A stretch of 6,817 bases of DNA from Actinomycetota bacterium. Lineage in GTDB: Bacteria > Actinomycetota > Acidimicrobiia > Acidimicrobiales > CADCTF01. This document shows positions 3-6,817 of the stretch, piece after piece; within the stretch, counting starts at the first letter, position 1, and every line of letters starts with the position of its first letter. The translations under genes and the position numbers were made by a program. The DNA lies in the NCBI GenBank assembly GCA_019348305.1, contig JAHWJQ010000112.1:1-6817 (forward strand), in the 5' to 3' direction. Below the pieces are notes generated by a model. The model made no database searches. It was not told the DNA's origin and saw only the letters and a program-made list of their open reading frames with translations.

Positions 3-398
3 ATGACGGGTTTCCAGAAGTTCGTGGAGATGCCGATCACCGGACGCGAGGACAGCTATGCGCCGGCGAAGTAGGGTCAAAAGCTTCTGCCAGTGAACCC
101 GAGCAGTGACGAGGGGCTCAAGCGGTTGAACTACGCGTTGCACTTCTCGCTCGGTGCCATGTGGGGTGCGGCCTACGGTGTCGCTGCTTATGCTGGCCTA
201 CGCGGTGTGCGGGCCGTGGCCACCACATTCGCGGTCATCTACACAAATGATCTCCTCACGCCCACTGCACTCGGCCTCACCAATCCGTTGAAGTGGTCGC
301 GCCAGGATCTCGTGGTTGACGTCGTCGACAAGTTCGTACAGGTGATGGCCACGGGTGCGGTCTTCGATCGCGTTCTGGGACCAGCCGCCACTTCGTAG
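3..398 (+). pseudogene. Small multi-helix membrane protein, 3' part, interrupted by in-frame TAG
   Basis: One reading frame runs from the left edge to the TAG at 396-398, broken only by an amber codon at 72-74. The piece before it contains VEMPITGRED-S-Y-APAK; the piece after it continues with GQKLLPVNPSSDEG and membrane-like segments (HFSLGAMWGAAYG, then a helix ending in ATGAVFD). The two pieces belong together because the intact gene at 3056-3556 aligns on both sides of the stop: its DMAVRGRP-SS-VPADTAGK pairs with EMPITGRE-DS-APAK*GQK, and its ALGVSDPRTW...ATATAFD pairs without gaps with ALGLTNPLKW...ATGAVFD. A GTG at 93 could restart translation but has no clear ribosome binding site and would lose the first conserved segment. 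The true start lies outside the window. Function is unknown. It is either a pseudogene or an intact gene with a base-calling error. Confidence 0.6.
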
Positions 399-407
399 CG
401 GGGTTGA

Positions 408-851
408 GCGGCCTCGATAAAGGGGCCCGCCATCGGCCGCGCCGCCGACCGCCACGGCCGGCAGCACCTGCTCCCCGTCGGCCTCGCCGTGGGTGCCGTC
501 GGCGCGGCGGCGCTGATTCCCCACGTCGGTGTCGTCCCCGCTGCGCTGGCCGTTCTCGTCGTCTCCCTCGGCTACGACCTCACCCAACCGCTGCTCGCCG
601 GCATGGTCACCGCCATCGGCGGGCCGCAGCGCAGCGGTCAAGTCATGGGTCTGAACGTGTTCATCTTGTTCACCGGCTTCGGCCTCGGCGTCTTCCTCTT
701 TGGAGAAGCGCTCACCCTAGGATTCTCGGCGGCGCTCGGGATCTTCACCACCTGCGAAGCAGCGCTCGCCCTGATCGGCCTGTGGTTGTTCCGGGACGAG
801 CGAGCGCAGTCCCCGCCGACGCCCCAGCGGGTGCACACGGATGCGGTGTAG
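408..851 (+). pseudogene. MFS transporter remnant, C-terminal third only
   Basis: The open frame begins just after a TGA at 405-407 and reads straight into IKGPAIGRAADRHGR, which matches the conserved MFS loop motif (G-x-x-x-D-R-x-G-R) between helices 8 and 9. Four hydrophobic segments follow, containing GLAVGAVGAAALIPHV, VLVVSLGYDLTQPLL, VFILFTGFGLGVFLF and FTTCEAALALIGLWLF, then a polar tail. About 147 codons remain, whereas the family usually has about 400 residues and 12 helices, so the first eight helices are missing. The break falls within about 10 bases of the stop of the preceding gene, which suggests a deletion joined the two. A GTG at 489 could initiate a 120-residue piece, but that would drop the loop motif, and transport activity is not expected. 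The end overlaps the start of the hydrolase gene by 11 bases. Confidence 0.7.
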
Positions 852-2395: not shown

Positions 2396-2427
2396 TTGAC
2401 CTGCCACTGGACTGGAACGTCGATACT
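2396..2427 (+). promoter_or_regulatory. MerR-family-type promoter/operator upstream of the copper-storage gene
   Basis: TTGACC (2396-2401) and GATACT (2422-2427) are separated by 20 bases, longer than the usual 17. In between and overlapping the -35 is an imperfect dyad: GACCTGCCA (2398-2406), six bases, TGGAACGTC (2413-2421), matching at seven of nine arm positions. A long spacer with the operator between the -35 and -10 is the signature of promoters activated by MerR-family metal sensors such as CueR and ZntR, which untwist the spacer. Transcription would begin near 2434, leaving a leader of about 68 bases before the ATG at 2502. A copper-responsive CueR-like sensor is the natural guess given the downstream gene, but none is encoded in the window. 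Confidence 0.55.
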
Positions 2428-2501
2428 GGAGCGACGCCGGTCCTCCGTGGCTAGGCGCCAAAGTCACTGCACTGCCCCCGACAAGGAAAGAGGAACCAGC
2501 G

Positions 2502-2849
2502 ATGGCAACCACCCTCGTCCCCGAGCGGACCAAGGACTGCATCGACGCCTGCAACGACTGCGTGGCGAAATGTGAAGCCTGCGCCAACCAGTGCATCAGC
2601 AACGCCGACCAGGCCATGGTCGAGTGCATCAAGCTCTGCCTCGACTGCGCCGATCTGTGCGCCGCCTGCGTCCCGCTCCTCGCCCGCGAGTCGCGCTACT
2701 ACGCCGAGCTCTGCCGCGTGTGCGCCGACGCCTGCGATGCTTGTGCGTCGGAGTGCGAGAAGTTCGACGACGACTACATGCGCCAGTGCGCGGAGGCGTG
2801 CCGGCGGGTTGCCAACTCCTGTCGTCAGCTGGCGGGCGCCGCCGGTTAA
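2502..2849 (+). CDS. Four-helix-bundle copper-storage protein (Csp3-like, DUF326 type)
   Basis: A 115-residue protein with 19 cysteines (13, 17, 20, 24, 27, 31, 42, 46, 49, 53, 56, 71, 74, 78, 81, 85, 96, 100, 107) arranged at 3-4 residue intervals, so that they line one face of each of four helices. This is the pattern of the Csp copper-storage proteins, in which cysteines inside a four-helix bundle hold many Cu(I) ions. There is no signal peptide, so it belongs with the cytosolic Csp3 type, whose known members carry about 18-19 Cys. Such proteins are often mislabelled as ferredoxins because of their cysteines. There are no histidines at all. AAAGAGGA at 2487-2494 is a well-placed ribosome binding site for ATG 2502. 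The MerR-type promoter just upstream suggests induction by metal. Expected role: storing or buffering Cu(I) in the cytosol. Confidence 0.88.
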   Translation: MATTLVPERTKDCIDACNDCVAKCEACANQCISNADQAMVECIKLCLDCADLCAACVPLLARESRYYAELCRVCADACDACASECEKFDDDYMRQCAEACRRVANSCRQLAGAAG

Positions 2850-3040
2850 GTCGCCGGAGGACACCAAGGAGGTGGGGCTGGCGCTGGCCGGTGAAGCCGT
2901 TATCGCCTGCCCGAACTTCGGCAGCGGCCGCAAGCTCCGCTCGACGTGATCGCCACAGCGGACACCCTGGAACGAGCGCGTCTGCATCGGCGGGCGCGCT
3001 GGCTGGATCCGAAGCCAACCGTCTGCTTGTCCCTTGCCAG

Positions 3041-3047
3041 AAGGAGG
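3041..3047 (+). promoter_or_regulatory. Strong Shine-Dalgarno for the membrane-protein pair
   Basis: AAGGAGG lies eight bases before the ATG at 3056 and fixes that start. The longer open frame further upstream overlaps the copper-storage gene and is not coding. No clear promoter was seen in the 206 bases between the copper-storage stop and this gene, so read-through from the MerR-type promoter is plausible. Confidence 0.55.
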
Positions 3048-3055
3048 CACTCCTC

Positions 3056-3556
3056 ATGGCCAGCTTGCTTCGAGGAGTGGCGGCGGGAGCCATCGGCACC
3101 GCCGTACTCAACACGCTGACGTACCTGGACATGGCGGTGCGCGGCCGGCCATCGAGCAGCGTTCCCGCCGACACCGCAGGCAAGATGGCCGATCTCGCCG
3201 ACATCCCGCTCGCCGCCGAAGGCGGCGACAGTGACAAGGCCTCGGCCCGCCGGGAAGCCATCGGCGCATTGCTCGGCTACGCCGCCGGGTTCGGCGTGGG
3301 CGGGGTCTACGGCCTCCTACGCCCGGGCCCGCTGCGTGGCATCCCTCGGTCGGTAGCCGGCGTTGGACTCGCCGCTGCAGCAACGGTGAGCACCGTGGCG
3401 CCGTACGCCGCCCTCGGTGTGTCGGATCCTCGGACCTGGCCGGCAAAGAGCTGGGCTGCCGACATCATCCCCCACCTGTGTTACGGGTGGGCAACAGCGA
3501 CGGCATTCGACGCCCTGCACCAGCCGGAGGGCACTCGATCCGGAAGGAACCGGTGA
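3056..3556 (+). CDS. Four-helix membrane protein of unknown function
   Basis: A 166-residue membrane protein. Predicted helices are near residues 5-24 (GVAAGAIGTAVLNTLTYL), 68-88 (IGALLGYAAGFGVGGVYGLL), 98-120 and 133-152. The segment between helices 1 and 2 is polar and carries DMAVRGRPSS (25-34), a conserved-looking motif also present in the broken gene at the left edge. The C-terminal helix follows ALGVSDPRTW and ends in ATATAFD, again shared with that gene. I do not recognise a named family with certainty; the layout resembles uncharacterised actinobacterial DUF proteins. It is 206 bases downstream of the copper-storage gene and overlaps the next gene by one base (TGATG at 3554-3558), so the two membrane proteins are surely co-translated. 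A role in metal or envelope stress is suggested by context only. Confidence 0.75.
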   Translation: MASLLRGVAAGAIGTAVLNTLTYLDMAVRGRPSSSVPADTAGKMADLADIPLAAEGGDSDKASARREAIGALLGYAAGFGVGGVYGLLRPGPLRGIPRSVAGVGLAAAATVSTVAPYAALGVSDPRTWPAKSWAADIIPHLCYGWATATAFDALHQPEGTRSGRNR

Positions 3557-4092
3557 TGGTCGAGTTCCACCTCGTGGCGGCGTTGGTCGCCGGGTTGGCA
3601 GCGACCGTCGTCATGACCGTGATGATGAACGCCGCCAAGGCCGCCGGGATGACGAACATGCCGCCCATGCCCCTTGTCATGGGATCGATGATGTCGGGAA
3701 ACCGAAGGACGGCCACCGGCATCGGGCCGATGATGCACTTCGTCGTTATGGGCACCGTGATCTTCGGCCTCGGCTACACGGTGTTGTTCACCGTGTTCGA
3801 CAACGATGCCTGGTGGCTCGGCATGGTCATCGGGCTCGTGCACGGGCTCGTCGTCGGCGCCATGGCCATGCCGATGATGCCGTCGGTGCACCCGCGCATG
3901 GAGCGGGACGCGACCAGTCGCGGTTTGTCGGGTGGCGCGACGGTCACCGAGCGAGCCGGCGAGGTACGCGTTGCGGCTCCCGGGATGCTCGGCAGTCGGT
4001 GGGGACAGATGACACCGATCGGCATCTTGATGGGCCATGCCATCTACGGGGTGGTCCTGGCACTGGTCTATGGATGGGTGGCCGGAGGATGA
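3556..4092 (+). CDS. Methionine-rich four-helix membrane protein
   Basis: A 178-residue membrane protein with 22 methionines (12%), no cysteines and five histidines (5, 61, 96, 112, 161). Predicted helices lie near residues 5-24, 58-82, 87-108 and 155-176. Met clusters sit at helix ends and in loops: MTNMPPMPLVMGSMM (32-46), GPMMH (57-61), GAMAMPMMP (101-109) followed by VHPRM (111-115). Such Met/His clusters are typical Cu(I) or Ag(I) ligands in exported copper proteins, so a metal-binding or metal-moving role is an attractive inference, although Met is also simply hydrophobic. GGAAGGAA at 3542-3549 is the ribosome binding site, and the ATG overlaps the stop of the preceding gene. I do not recognise the family. 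The region at about residues 116-150 is polar and probably forms one long loop. Confidence 0.78.
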   Translation: MVEFHLVAALVAGLAATVVMTVMMNAAKAAGMTNMPPMPLVMGSMMSGNRRTATGIGPMMHFVVMGTVIFGLGYTVLFTVFDNDAWWLGMVIGLVHGLVVGAMAMPMMPSVHPRMERDATSRGLSGGATVTERAGEVRVAAPGMLGSRWGQMTPIGILMGHAIYGVVLALVYGWVAGG

Positions 4093-4415
4093 GACGGTGC
4101 CTACGTTGTTTCGGAACAGATGGGAAGTCAACAGGGTCCCCTACCGGGGGCGAGCAGCGCGGGGCAACCTGCTTGCTCGGGCCCGTAATCCACCAGTCAA
4201 CCGGCGCTTGAGGTGCGACAGCTGCACGGGACGACGTCGAGGCAGCGCCGGCGCCGGGGGTTACGAATACCAGCACTGCGGCGGCGGCTAGCAACACGAC
4301 GGCGGGTACGTCAGGCGCCAGGTAGCCGAACCAAATGTTCCGTCGCGCTCGCCTCGTTTCCGCCCGAGCCGGCTACTTGTTCAGAATCCACCCCTGAGGG
4401 ACCGGGGATGTCCAT

Positions 4416-4463
4416 CCTCGGTCTTAGGTGCCCGACAGTGTGGCTCGTGAGCTAGGTCCGAGG
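4416..4463. repeat. 12-bp imperfect inverted repeat upstream of the thioredoxin gene
   Basis: CCTCGGTCTTAG (4416-4427) pairs with CTAGGTCCGAGG (4452-4463) at 10 of 12 positions around a 24-base loop. The heptamer GGTCTTA also occurs as a direct repeat at 4420-4426 and 4462-4468. There is no T-tract after it. It may stop upstream transcription or bind a regulator. Confidence 0.4.
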
Positions 4464-4474
4464 TCTTACCACCC

Positions 4475-4489
4475 AGCCGGCAACCGGCT
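4475..4489. repeat. Perfect 6-bp hairpin abutting the -35 box
   Basis: AGCCGG (4475-4480), loop CAA, CCGGCT (4484-4489). The right arm ends on the first T of the TTGACC -35 box, so this palindrome could be a second operator or a small terminator for upstream transcripts. Confidence 0.35.
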
Positions 4490-4520
4490 TGACCTTAGAG
4501 CCAACTCAAGAGTTTACCGT
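4489..4520 (+). promoter_or_regulatory. Second MerR-type promoter, driving the thioredoxin gene
   Basis: TTGACC (4489-4494), 20 bases, TACCGT (4515-4520). The spacer carries an imperfect dyad, ACCTTAGAG (4492-4500), CCAA, CTCAAGAGT (4505-4513), with six of nine arm positions matching. The dyad centre is 13.5 bases from the first T of the -35, exactly as in the promoter at 2396, although the arm sequences differ. The expected transcription start falls at about 4527, the A of the start codon, so the mRNA would be leaderless. The -10 is weak, as expected for an activator-dependent promoter. Confidence 0.5.
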
Positions 4521-4526
4521 CGCCCC

Positions 4527-5405
4527 ATGGGCAACGTCGTACCGACGGCCGCCGTCGATGGGGCCTGCTCGTGCGGGTGCAGCAGCGCCTGGCTCCTGAC
4601 CAAGGCGCTCGAGCCCTGTGGGTGCGGATGCCGCTGTTGTCGCAAACAGCCTCGCTGCAAGACCGACGAGGTTGCCGCGCTACGAGCGGTCGAGGCCGCC
4701 ATCGATGAGCGCCTCGGGCAACTGGGCGCGCTCGACCCGCCCCGTGCGCCTGGCCAACCTCTCGCCCCGCCAGGACGTCGCCCCCGAATCCAGCTGTGGC
4801 CGGCAATCGTGGGCATGGCCGCAATCGTGGGCCTGGCCGCTCTGATCCCCTTGCTCATCCTGCTGGCGCTGGCCGTGACGCCGCCGGCCCGAGGGTTGCA
4901 CTCACCCGCTCCGGGATCTCCCGGCCCGGACTTCGCCCTACCTCGGCTGGGAGCCGCAGGCCAATACGGCACCGCCGAGCTGCAGGGCAACCTCGTGGTC
5001 GTGACGTTTTGGAGCTCGTGGTGTGAGCCCTGCGTGGAGGAGGCGCGCCAGTTGGAGGAAATCTGGCAGCGTCACCGCCACGACGGCCTGGTGGTGCTCG
5101 GAGTGAACGTGAGCGACACCGAGGCGGACGCCCTCGCCTTCCTCCACCGCCATGGCATCAGCTACCCCAATGTGCGGGATTGGGGGATGGTCACCGCTGG
5201 GTTCGGAGCGACGGGGATGCCCGAGACCCACTTCTTCAACGAGAACTGGGAGCTGCACGCAGCAAATCGCGGCTTCGAGCTTTGGGTGGACGTGCGGAGC
5301 GGGATGCTGGTCAGACAGCCCGGAGTGCCCTCCATGCTCGAACGCTCGCTCCAAGGCCTCTTTGCCACCCGCTTTGATGAAGAACCGAAGCCAGGGTTGG
5401 CGTAA
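4527..5405 (+). CDS. Cys-rich N-terminus fused to membrane-anchored TlpA/ResA-like thioredoxin
   Basis: A 292-residue protein in three parts. Residues 14-44 hold nine cysteines in CSCGC and CGCGCRCC-type clusters, followed by a helix (about 47-66, VAALRAVEAAIDERLGQL). A single membrane helix spans about 89-118 (WPAIVGMAAIVGLAALIPLL), preceded by RRPR, which favours N-terminus inside. From about 130 a thioredoxin-fold domain of the TlpA/ResA/CcmG type follows: PDFALPRL, VVVTFWSSWCEPC with the redox pair Cys166/Cys169, VVLGVNVSD, and the cis-proline in GMPETHFF (Pro232). The catalytic domain should lie outside the membrane and the Cys cluster in the cytosol, an unusual pairing. The start ATG 4527 has no Shine-Dalgarno, but it coincides with the predicted transcript start of a MerR-type promoter; the frame is open back to 4428, across that promoter. 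Likely a thiol-disulfide reductase linked to metal or cytochrome maturation. Confidence 0.82.
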   Translation: MGNVVPTAAVDGACSCGCSSAWLLTKALEPCGCGCRCCRKQPRCKTDEVAALRAVEAAIDERLGQLGALDPPRAPGQPLAPPGRRPRIQLWPAIVGMAAIVGLAALIPLLILLALAVTPPARGLHSPAPGSPGPDFALPRLGAAGQYGTAELQGNLVVVTFWSSWCEPCVEEARQLEEIWQRHRHDGLVVLGVNVSDTEADALAFLHRHGISYPNVRDWGMVTAGFGATGMPETHFFNENWELHAANRGFELWVDVRSGMLVRQPGVPSMLERSLQGLFATRFDEEPKPGLA

Positions 5406-5660: not shown

Positions 5661-6017
5661 GCCCACCAGCCGCGGGCGCCGAGCACCAGGGAGTCCCCTC
5701 AGGCGGGATCCTGCGGCCGGCCATGCTGTTGTTGTTACGGGACCAGGAAAGCCACGGCTATGAACTCCTCAAGCGCTTGGCGGAGCTCGACTTAGAGGCG
5801 CCGGCGACCACCGGAGCGGCTGTACCGTTCGCTTCGCACCATGGCCGACGAAGGCCTCGTCACTTCCTACTGGAGCACTCCGGATCGGGGGCCGGCACGG
5901 AGGGTGTACGCCATCACCGAGGAGGGGGAGCAGCATCTCGAGCAGTGGATGCCCGCGCTGGCCAGGCTCGGACAGACGCTGCGAGGGATGCTGAACCGCT
6001 ATCGGCGCGCCGGCTGA
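5657..6017 (+). pseudogene. PadR-family transcriptional regulator with a one-base frameshift
   Basis: The first half reads GGILRPAMLLLLRDQESHGYELLKRLAEL, the typical first helices of the PadR winged-helix domain (L-L-x-x-x-x-x-HGYEL). From about 5820 the continuation is in another frame: LYRSLRTMADEGLVTSYW, then PDRGPARRVYAITEEGEQHL, which are the recognition helix and wing of PadR, then a C-terminal helix ending in TGA 6015-6017. Removing one G at 5818-5819 (GCGGCTG to GCGCTG) joins the halves as ATTGALYRSLRT and gives an uninterrupted 119-residue protein, a normal size for small PadR proteins. The length of 361 bases is also one more than a whole number of codons. Either the gene is inactivated or the read has an indel. 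GTG 5657 is the preferred start but uncertain. PadR proteins usually repress neighbouring transporter or detoxification genes; its target here is unknown. Confidence 0.75.
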
Positions 6018-6315
6018 CACCGCTGCGGGCGGGCGTAGCGATCGAGGACCATCAGATTCGCCCCAAGTGTCGACTCGGGTCGAGGAATCTGACGAGACCT
6101 ACCGCTGTGGAAACCGCGGTGCGGCCGTGGGGCTGACCGTCGTCACGCTCGTGCTCGCGGGGGCGGCAAGGGCTGGATGGAAGTCACCGGGCGCATGACG
6201 GCGAAGCATGACGGAATCGGCGGGGTAGCGACACCCCGGGGCGCGGCGACGCCACGGACTGGTATGAGCCCATATTCGAGGCACCGAAATCGTGAGAACC
6301 GAGCAGTAAGCAGGT
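6018..6315. other. Region between padR remnant and transposase, no supported gene
   Basis: Holds a nested inverted repeat (6052-6092), a nine-base direct repeat GCATGACGG (6193-6201 and 6206-6214), and a small GGGGT/ACCCC hairpin near 6220-6235. A 43-codon plus-strand frame from GTG 6067 has one hydrophobic stretch ([16 protein letters not shown]) but no ribosome binding site and starts inside the hairpin. The right part is also the non-conserved tail of the transposase frame. Confidence 0.4.
6052..6092. repeat. Nested inverted repeat after the padR remnant
   Basis: TCAGATTC (6052-6059) pairs perfectly with GAATCTGA (6085-6092). Inside it TCGAC (6070-6074) pairs perfectly with GTCGA (6079-6083) around TCGG. 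Unpaired bases are asymmetric: ten on the left, one on the right. It starts 34 bases after the padR stop and has no T-tract, so it could be a terminator-like structure or a protein-binding or recombination site. Confidence 0.45.
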
Positions 6316-6817
6316 CCGAGTGTGCCATGTCACCCCACAGCGCAGAAGGAGCCGGAGCCGATAGTTGTCGAAGTTGCGGAATCCATGGCCGATTCTGCGG
6401 ACCTTCTCGATGAGCAGGTTCACGGCCTCGGTGGGTCCGTTCGACAGCCCGGTGGTGTGGTAGGCGAGCACCTCGTGCTCCCAGGCGGAGACGGTCTTGG
6501 CCAGGCGAGTGACTTCGGGGACCTGCACCTCGGCGCACCACTCGTAGAACGCCACCAGTGCCCGCCGGGCAGCGAGCACGTCGTCGGCGGCGTACACGGC
6601 CCGAAGGAGCTCCTTGGCCGTCCATGCGGCGCCGACCTCGTCGAAGCGGTCGCCCGCAGCCAGGCCGGCGGCGATTCGGACTCGGCCTCGTTCGCCCAGG
6701 CGCTCGGCGCCGACCAGCAGCAGGCGGCGGATGCCATAGAGCGGATCGCCCTTGCGCCCCCGGTGGCCGAGCACCTCTTGTTGCACCCGGCGCCGCACGT
6801 CGTCCACGGCGGCGTTG
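6184..6817 (-). mobile_element. ISL3-family transposase, C-terminal fragment running off the window
   Basis: Reading leftward from the right edge, the frame encodes [27 protein letters not shown], then [12 protein letters not shown], a helix with [18 protein letters not shown], and the hallmark [21 protein letters not shown] followed by [19 protein letters not shown]. This is the C-terminal part of ISL3-type (IS204/IS1001/IS1096/IS1165) DDE transposases, and the Glu in GPTEAVN is the expected third catalytic residue. The two catalytic Asp residues and the start lie beyond the window. The conserved sequence ends at W-H-T-R (about 6316); the 43 residues after it are unlike the short basic tail usual in the family and probably come from flanking DNA, so the 3' end of the element may be truncated or joined to something else. 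Confidence 0.8.

What the first reader, a model, noticed from the sequence alone, without database searches (positions are those of the whole stretch)
2396..5405. Candidate copper/thiol module: Csp3-like store, Met-rich membrane protein and Cys-rich thioredoxin under MerR-type promoters
Seen: a 19-Cys, His-free cytosolic Csp; a paired membrane operon whose second member has 22 Met and no Cys; and a Cys-rich/thioredoxin membrane fusion, all on one strand and flanked by two promoters with MerR geometry. Known: Csp proteins store Cu(I), MerR-family sensors such as CueR activate copper genes through long-spacer promoters, and TlpA/ResA/CcmG proteins reduce thiols, some of them for copper or haem centres. 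Inference: the set stores, passes and redox-manages copper across the membrane. I am not aware of this exact combination being described.
Basis: partly seen in the sequence, partly recalled or inferred. Interest (0 to 1): 0.75.

Follow-up and report, generated by a model that had tools for sequence, protein, structure and literature searches.

The report
Metal-stress gene set with thiol-reductase fusion
A stretch of DNA from an uncultured bacterium, probably an actinobacterium, carries a copper-storage protein, a methionine-rich membrane protein and an unusual membrane thiol reductase whose cysteine-rich tail is found elsewhere as a small protein made together with a metal-type regulator, which suggests a combined metal and thiol-damage defence.

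Summary
The genes are real and largely as described. The Csp has a Csp3 fold (model matches BsCsp3) but lacks the classical His motif. The 22-Met protein belongs to a Met/His-conserved clade near DUF6789. The last gene fuses a Cys-rich domain, one membrane helix and a ResA/TlpA-type thioredoxin domain (CEPC).

New here: the Cys-rich domain ("Cys8": CxCGC…CxCGCxCC plus helix) has four full-length stand-alone relatives in a 66-genome class, all directly downstream of a merR gene; one such operon follows a CopC-CopD gene. The G412 operator finds its best window match at the TlpA promoter, 4489 (25 of 34; at most 23 in 1000 shuffles).

The Met-rich protein lies within 2 kb of a thiol-redox gene in 6 of 9 genomes (0.22 expected; three of four families chosen afterwards).

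Not supported: conservation of the gene order (0 of 51 fetched memB loci hold a csp) and a copper-only reading; the Cys8-linked MerRs resemble divalent-metal sensors.

Best reading: two MerR-controlled units, a Cu(I) store and a Cys8-tailed envelope thiol reductase, beside an unexplained Met-rich membrane protein. No metal binding or regulation was tested.

The parts
2396..2427 (+). MerR-family-type promoter before csp: TTGACC-N20-GATACT, half-sites ACCTGCCA and TGGAACGT (CueR/HmrR-like halves, but 6 bases between them and a 20-bp spacer)
   Evidence: CueR/HmrR signals from PMC1526738 (passages)
2502..2849 (+). Csp3-type cytosolic copper-storage protein, 19 Cys, no His
3056..3556 (+). memA: small, moderately hydrophobic protein, family unknown (DUF6789 model only at 10.7 bits, under its 27.1 cut-off)
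   Evidence: no profile similarity to memB
3556..4092 (+). memB: Met-rich (22 Met), Cys-free membrane protein of a Met/His-conserved clade of DUF6789; start overlaps memA stop
4489..4526 (+). MerR-type promoter/operator with -10 TACCGT 6 nt before the ATG (predicted leaderless transcript)
4527..5405 (+). Cys8-TlpA fusion protein, 292 aa
4566..4730 (+). Cys8 domain (residues 14-68): CSCGC-x12-CGCGCRCC then a helix; predicted cytosolic
4821..4877 (+). single transmembrane helix (residues 99-117), 3 K/R in the 15 residues before and 1 in the 15 after
4911..5276 (+). ResA/TlpA-type thioredoxin domain (about residues 129-250), active site CEPC at residues 166-169

Best explanation
A thiophilic-metal and thiol-stress gene set made of two separately controlled units. 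Unit 1 (promoter 2396, genes csp-memA-memB, each with a Shine-Dalgarno-like stretch by eye): a MerR-family regulator encoded elsewhere, perhaps of the copper-sensing kind, would switch on a cytosolic Cu(I) store; memB would act in the membrane through its conserved Met and His residues. Unit 2 (promoter 4489, leaderless): a MerR-family regulator of the kind found in merR-Cys8 operons would switch on a protein whose cytosolic Cys8 tail binds the incoming metal and whose outer thioredoxin domain re-reduces envelope thiols that the metal has oxidised or bridged. Shown by computation: gene identities, Csp3 fold, Met/His conservation, Cys8 homology and its merR linkage in four of four full-length cases, operator match, statistical link of memB with thiol-redox genes. 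Inferred: which metal, membrane topology, the direction of electron or metal flow, that csp-memA-memB are one transcript, and that the two units work together.
For: Csp: best solved relative BsCsp3 5fig, 67.8 bits; AlphaFold model pLDDT 93.8, Foldseek best match Cu(I)-BsCsp3 6wkt, TM 0.86/0.93. In other genomes of the phylum, csp was seen (gene names by eye) beside CopA-like ATPase or CsoR-like genes in 4 of the 30 csp loci read (L047, L054, L060, L073). Cys8: four full-length stand-alone relatives and one short variant in 4 of 66 class genomes; all four full-length genes overlap or lie about 25 bp behind a merR gene. The G412 operon follows a CopC-CopD protein (PF04234 64.1 bits, PF05425 33.1 bits). 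Operator: the G412 merR-Cys8 promoter has its best match in the whole window at 4489 (25 of 34; none of 1000 dinucleotide shuffles exceeds 23), the G290 one at 4490 (22); G237 shares TTGAC-N20-TACCNT-N6-ATG. memB: of 9 genomes with strong memB, 6 have an AhpC-TSA, DsbD, glutaredoxin or DSBA gene within 2 kb, 0.22 expected, P = 1.5e-8; AhpC-TSA alone, the family of the window's own neighbour, 3 of 9, 0.11 expected, P = 1.6e-4.
Against: No csp in any of 51 fetched memB loci; the order csp-memA-memB-TlpA was found nowhere. Csp and memB co-occur in 7 of 396 genomes (2.8 expected, P = 0.015) but without excess inside the class (P = 0.48). memA relatives show no constant neighbours in the loci read. 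Two of the four merR-Cys8 operators do not single out 4489: G411's best match in the window is elsewhere (20, at 3835) and G237's ties 4489 with 2396 (20 each). The ideal palindrome CCTTGGAGTNNACTCCAAGG is matched only 13 of 18 at 4489 (none within 3 mismatches). The short Cys8 variant L118 shows no merR beside it. The window holds no merR gene. Three of the four thiol families in the memB test were picked after I had seen them beside memB. memB has no useful match in PDB or BFVD, so its role rests on conservation and neighbours alone.
Confidence: 0.5

Rival explanations
1. A copper-only module: store (Csp), membrane passage (memB) and redox handling (TlpA) of Cu(I) under CueR-like control.
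For: Csp3 identity; CueR/HmrR-like half-sites before csp (2 mismatches to ACCTTCC-N8-GGAAGGT; published signals in PMC1526738); Met- and His-rich memB; one Cys8 operon beside CopC-CopD and a BlaI/CopY-type repressor.
Against: The csp site has 6 central bases and a 20-bp spacer, whereas CueR/HmrR promoters are reported with 19 bp; matches within 3 mismatches occur in 35 of 200 shuffles. The operator family of 4489 resembles the ZntR type (ACTCTGGAGTCGACTCCAGAGT in a 20-bp spacer). The three Cys8-linked MerR proteins scored give MerR(Hg) 92-93, ZntR 84-89, CueR 72-77 bits, all below cut-offs. No conserved csp-memB linkage.
Confidence: 0.22
2. A chance juxtaposition in a rearranged region: an ordinary csp gene, a DUF6789-type pair and a TlpA gene with no common role.
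For: Order not conserved; the window also carries a truncated MFS remnant, a PadR-type gene split between two frames and an ISL3 transposase fragment, which suggests a disturbed region.
Against: Two MerR-type promoters in front of two Cys-rich proteins on one strand; memB linked to thiol-redox genes in other genomes.
Confidence: 0.23
3. A general oxidative/thiol-stress set in which the MerR regulator senses thiol damage rather than metal, the Cys8 tail being a redox switch for the thioredoxin domain.
For: memB neighbours include redoxin, DSBA, glutaredoxin, DoxX and FAD disulfide-reductase genes.
Against: Cys8 stands next to metal-type merR in four of four full-length cases and next to CopC-CopD in one; CxC-rich spacing is usual in metal-binding proteins (recalled).
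Confidence: 0.15

Closest known systems
Csp3 cytosolic copper-storage proteins (BsCsp3, SlCsp3, MtCsp3)
   Same: Four-helix bundle, no export signal seen, 19 Cys (as BsCsp3), fold match TM 0.86/0.93
   Different: All three loop His of classical Csp3s are replaced (CEKFDDDYMRQC against CGKHDHDHCQAC) and the Cys after them is Met; Cys in place of the gate Asp of BsCsp3, which is however common (84 of 120 relatives); wholly His-free proteins are 2 of 120 relatives
ResA/TlpA/DsbE-type membrane-anchored thiol-disulfide oxidoreductases
   Same: N-terminal anchor, AhpC-TSA/Redoxin fold, CxxC site CEPC (also the ResA site, recalled); ResA 2f9s 47.2 bits
   Different: A Cys8 domain of about 55 residues is fused before the membrane helix; of 12 relatives listed only the protein's own cluster covers it
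MerR-family metal-resistance operons (merR, cadR, zntR, cueR)
   Same: Palindrome inside a 19-20 bp promoter spacer; in the Cys8 operons the regulator is adjacent
   Different: The target is a small eight-Cys protein or, in the window, its fusion to a thiol reductase; no transporter and no regulator in the window
Bacterial metallothioneins (SmtA, MymT types)
   Same: Small, Cys-dense, CxC motifs, metal-type regulation (comparison recalled)
   Different: No Pfam or NCBIfam family reaches its cut-off for two stand-alone Cys8 proteins; a conserved helix follows the Cys clusters
DUF6789 (PF20587)
   Same: memB scores 27.8 bits against a 27.1 cut-off; His 61, 96, 112, 161 kept in 96-99% of 82 sequences
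   Different: 75 of 82 aligned proteins have 14-24 Met, the 7 others, mostly the most distant, 4-10; the one paper found for the name is about nematode receptors (search listing)

Membership tests
Csp3 (cytosolic copper-storage protein) | Four-helix bundle fold | tested here: met
   pLDDT 93.8, best match 6wkt TM 0.86/0.93
Csp3 (cytosolic copper-storage protein) | Many Cys along the helices, no export signal | tested here: met
   19 Cys; 17 align to Cys of BsCsp3, two (46, 56) are gained and two BsCsp3 Cys are lost; no N-terminal hydrophobic segment
Csp3, classical subgroup | Three-His motif in the alpha3-loop-alpha4 region (defined in PMC10155185, passages) | tested here: not met
   His-free; loop KFDDDYM
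Csp3 (cytosolic copper-storage protein) | Binds Cu(I) | not testable with these tools
   no experiment
MerR-family-regulated promoter | 19-20 bp spacer with palindrome between -35 and -10 (PMC1526738, passages) | tested here: met
   geometry at both sites; dyads imperfect (7 of 9 and 6 of 9)
MerR-family-regulated promoter | Cognate regulator present | tested here: inconclusive
   none in the window; no genome is held for it
CueR/HmrR site (csp promoter) | ACCTTCCC-(5)-TGGAAGGT or ACCTTCCAG-(3)-CTGGAAGG in a 19-bp spacer | tested here: not met
   half-sites 2 mismatches off over 14 positions, but 6 central bases and a 20-bp spacer
ResA/TlpA thiol-disulfide oxidoreductase | Membrane anchor, Trx fold, CxxC | tested here: met
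   CEPC 166-169
ResA/TlpA thiol-disulfide oxidoreductase | NCBIfam cut-off of ResA, DsbE or TlpA | tested here: not met
   57.3 against 170, 56.3 against 123.15, 29.3 against 230
DUF6789 (PF20587) | Gathering score | tested here: met
   memB 27.8 against 27.1; memA 10.7, not met
Known metallothionein families | Profile match above cut-off | tested here: not met
   no metallothionein profile listed for the fusion or for two stand-alone Cys8 proteins (the other two were not scanned)

The most novel reading that the evidence does not exclude
Cys8 is an unrecognised family of small metal-binding proteins made from merR-Cys8 operons in one actinobacterial class (probably Nitriliruptoria), and in the window's organism it has been fused to an outward-facing thiol reductase, giving a one-protein device that spans the membrane: metal captured by the inner Cys8 tail on one side, thiol repair on the other, possibly with electrons or metal passed to the Met/His-rich memB protein.
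Probability: 0.3. Interest if true: 0.72.

Novelty: new variant of a known kind. Interest (0 to 1): 0.55.

Why it matters
It gives three concrete, testable handles: a compact eight-Cys protein family tied to merR regulators for which no Pfam or NCBIfam model reached its cut-off; a fusion that joins possible metal capture and envelope thiol repair in one polypeptide; and a Met/His-rich membrane protein clade of unknown function that recurs next to thiol-redox genes. The His-free Csp is also a natural test of the published question of how far the His motif matters for Cu(I) entry and release (PMC10155185, passages).

Tried and rejected
Conserved csp-memA-memB-TlpA neighbourhood: a csp profile run over all 124 sequences held finds csp in the window, in the 30 loci fetched for it and in one stretch around one of them (L117), and in none of the 51 loci that hold a memB-type gene. 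memA and memB as paralogues: hhalign probability 0.8%, rejected. Cys at the Csp gate position as a mark of a new subgroup: rejected, 84 of 120 relatives have it. Fold search for memB: three hits, none below E 1.8 in PDB, none in BFVD. Rfam: nothing up to E 0.1. Cys8 in plasmid records: none. Own-genome search for the regulator: impossible. A second G237 hit with the Cys8 query (E 5.3e-4) was fetched (L122) but shows no Cys8 match. Literature: the searches listed no paper whose title or abstract start describes this combination or merR-Cys8 operons; of papers I saw only passages of PMC10155185, PMC5171941 and PMC1526738.

The memB-thiol statistics: PF02683, PF00462 and PF01323 were added after I had seen such genes near memB; PF00578 was chosen because the window's own neighbour is of that family. 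Distances were read from the tables. A CcdA-like gene near memB in L034 and a piece of one in L035 were named by eye; Pfam gave them no match. Small control: of the places listed for these nine genomes (only six of the nine were in those searches), 0 of 5 csp places and 0 of 2 memA places have a hit within 2 kb.
Full report
Setting. No genome is held for the window. Besides the set, it carries an alpha/beta hydrolase and a SnoaL-like protein upstream and an ISL3 transposase fragment at its end. One memB relative lies in a record titled Actinobacteria bacterium QS_8_72_14.

Csp. The 115-residue protein has 19 Cys and no His. Its best solved relative is BsCsp3 and its model superposes on Cu(I)-BsCsp3. 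[quoted passage not shown] Here all three positions are changed and the following Cys is Met; of the best 120 relatives listed, 2 are wholly His-free. The protein is a Csp3 by fold and Cys content but not a classical one.

Membrane pair. memB has 22 Met. In an alignment of memB and 81 of the 101 relatives found, Met 20, 24, 35, 45 and 115 are kept in 91-99% and Met 65, 105, 107 and 108 in 85-89%; His 61, 112 and 161 in 99% and His 96 in 96%. Of the 82, 75 carry 14-24 Met and 7, mostly the most distant, 4-10, so Met-richness marks a clade. The model is confident (pLDDT 94.7) but has no useful match in PDB or BFVD. memA relatives occur in 45 of 396 genomes (E up to 1e-4) with no constant neighbour in the loci read; memA is not detectably related to memB and its hydropathy peaks at 1.44, under the 1.6 threshold.

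Neighbours of memB. Strong memB relatives (E up to 1e-45) occur in 9 of 66 class genomes. In these nine I counted AhpC-TSA (79 matches), DsbD (19), glutaredoxin (23) and DSBA (27) genome-wide (148 in about 30.4 Mb). Within 2 kb of memB: G270 redoxin (about 80 bp, same strand), G363 glutaredoxin (about 50 bp, same strand), G001 DSBA (about 580 bp), G206 TlpA-like redoxin (about 1.2 kb, divergent), G411 redoxin (about 1.5 kb), G141 DSBA (about 1.6 kb). G290, G420 and G412 have none of these; in G412 memB lies at a contig end. Six of 9 compares with 0.22 expected (P = 1.5e-8); AhpC-TSA alone with 3 of 9 against 0.11 (P = 1.6e-4). Three of the four families were picked after seeing them, so the second figure is the fairer one. 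Csp is not part of this link: none of 51 fetched memB loci holds one.

TlpA fusion. Residues 14-44 carry nine Cys, a helix follows, then a basic stretch, one hydrophobic helix (99-117) and a redoxin domain with CEPC. By the positive-inside rule the Cys-rich part is cytosolic and the redoxin domain outside. The search of 5.8 billion proteins listed 12, of which only its own cluster covers the Cys-rich part; stand-alone small proteins were outside that search's length limits. The Cys-rich part alone gave matches up to E 0.01 in 21 of 396 genomes, of which only G237 and G290 are clear (E 4.9e-13 and 6.9e-11; the rest 4.9e-4 or weaker). An alignment of the three (A5) found four full-length stand-alone proteins in G237, G290, G412 and G411 and a fifth, short variant in G290, in 66 class genomes. 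All four full-length genes directly follow a merR gene. The three MerR proteins scored (G237, G412, G411) give 92-93 bits for mercury MerR, 84-89 for ZntR and 72-77 for CueR, all below the curated cut-offs. All four share CPCGH; in the G412 protein its second Cys aligns with a Cys of Bacillus MerR, CadR and Tn501 MerR. That CueR has Ser there is recalled. The G412 operon lies just after a CopC-CopD protein and near a BlaI/CopY-type repressor. The G411 one lies near a MerA/lipoamide-dehydrogenase-like flavoprotein, a DF-family (seleno)protein-like gene (69.5 bits, cut-off 70) and a second merR.

Operators. G412: TTGACCTTGGAGTCCACTCCAAGGTTTATGCTCG. Window 4489: TTGACCTTAGAGCCAACTCAAGAGTTTACCGTCG. 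They agree at 25 of 34 positions, the best place in the window on either strand; 1000 dinucleotide shuffles reach at most 23. The G290 operator also has its best place there (22 at 4490); the G237 one ties 4489 with 2396 (20 each); the G411 one prefers another place (20 at 3835). The -10 TACCGT stands 6 nt before the ATG, as TACCTT does before the G237 merR ATG, which fits a leaderless transcript. The G412 sequence resembles the ZntR signal ACTCTGGAGTCGACTCCAGAGT in a 20-bp spacer (PMC1526738, passages). The csp site has CueR/HmrR-like halves but 6 central bases and a 20-bp spacer, against 19 bp reported for CueR and HmrR.

Mechanism. I think most likely (0.5) that metal entry activates the two promoters through MerR-family regulators encoded elsewhere; Csp fills with Cu(I); the Cys8 tail captures thiophilic metal at the inner membrane face; the outer thioredoxin domain repairs oxidised or metal-bridged envelope thiols; memB supplies a Met/His site in the membrane. 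The metal, the capture step, the repair step and memB's role are inference. The copper-only version is less likely (0.22), because the Cys8-linked regulators and the operator look like the divalent-metal type.

Novelty. The parts are variants of known kinds. What no library searched named is the Cys8 family, its merR linkage and its fusion to a thiol reductase.

Noticed in passing
L032:235-690 (-), L077:10219-10677 (-), L078:9229-9951 (+): Three redoxin- or deiodinase-like genes near memB in other genomes have an in-frame TGA at the likely active-site position (HAG-TGA-LIC twice, SFT-TGA-PYC) and look like selenoproteins; many AhpC-TSA hits in these genomes carry one TGA.
   Followed up: partly
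L034:7516-9366 (+) and L077:8214-10019 (+): memB is directly followed by a DUF3179 gene in two genomes (G206, by Pfam; G411, by eye), with a DoxX gene upstream in L077 (Pfam) and, by eye, in L034.
   Followed up: partly
L121:6128-6421 (+): The G237 Cys8 protein carries a second, shorter Cys cluster after the helix, as if partly duplicated.
   Followed up: no
L118:4181-4423 (+): A short Cys8 variant (CSCGCC plus helix) beside hydrogenase-like genes, without a merR gene next to it.
   Followed up: no
window 5700-6020 (+): A PadR-type regulator (named by eye) whose parts lie in two reading frames, so it looks broken or mis-sequenced.
   Followed up: no
window 420-851 (+): A truncated major-facilitator transporter remnant (MFS_1 20.8 bits for 489-848, below the cut-off).
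   Followed up: no
window 6184-6807 (-): ISL3-family transposase cut by the window end (DDE_Tnp_ISL3 105.8 bits).
   Followed up: no
window 93-398 (+): A short ORF weakly similar to the C-terminal part of memA (28 bits in a pairwise comparison), possibly part of a related gene.
   Followed up: partly
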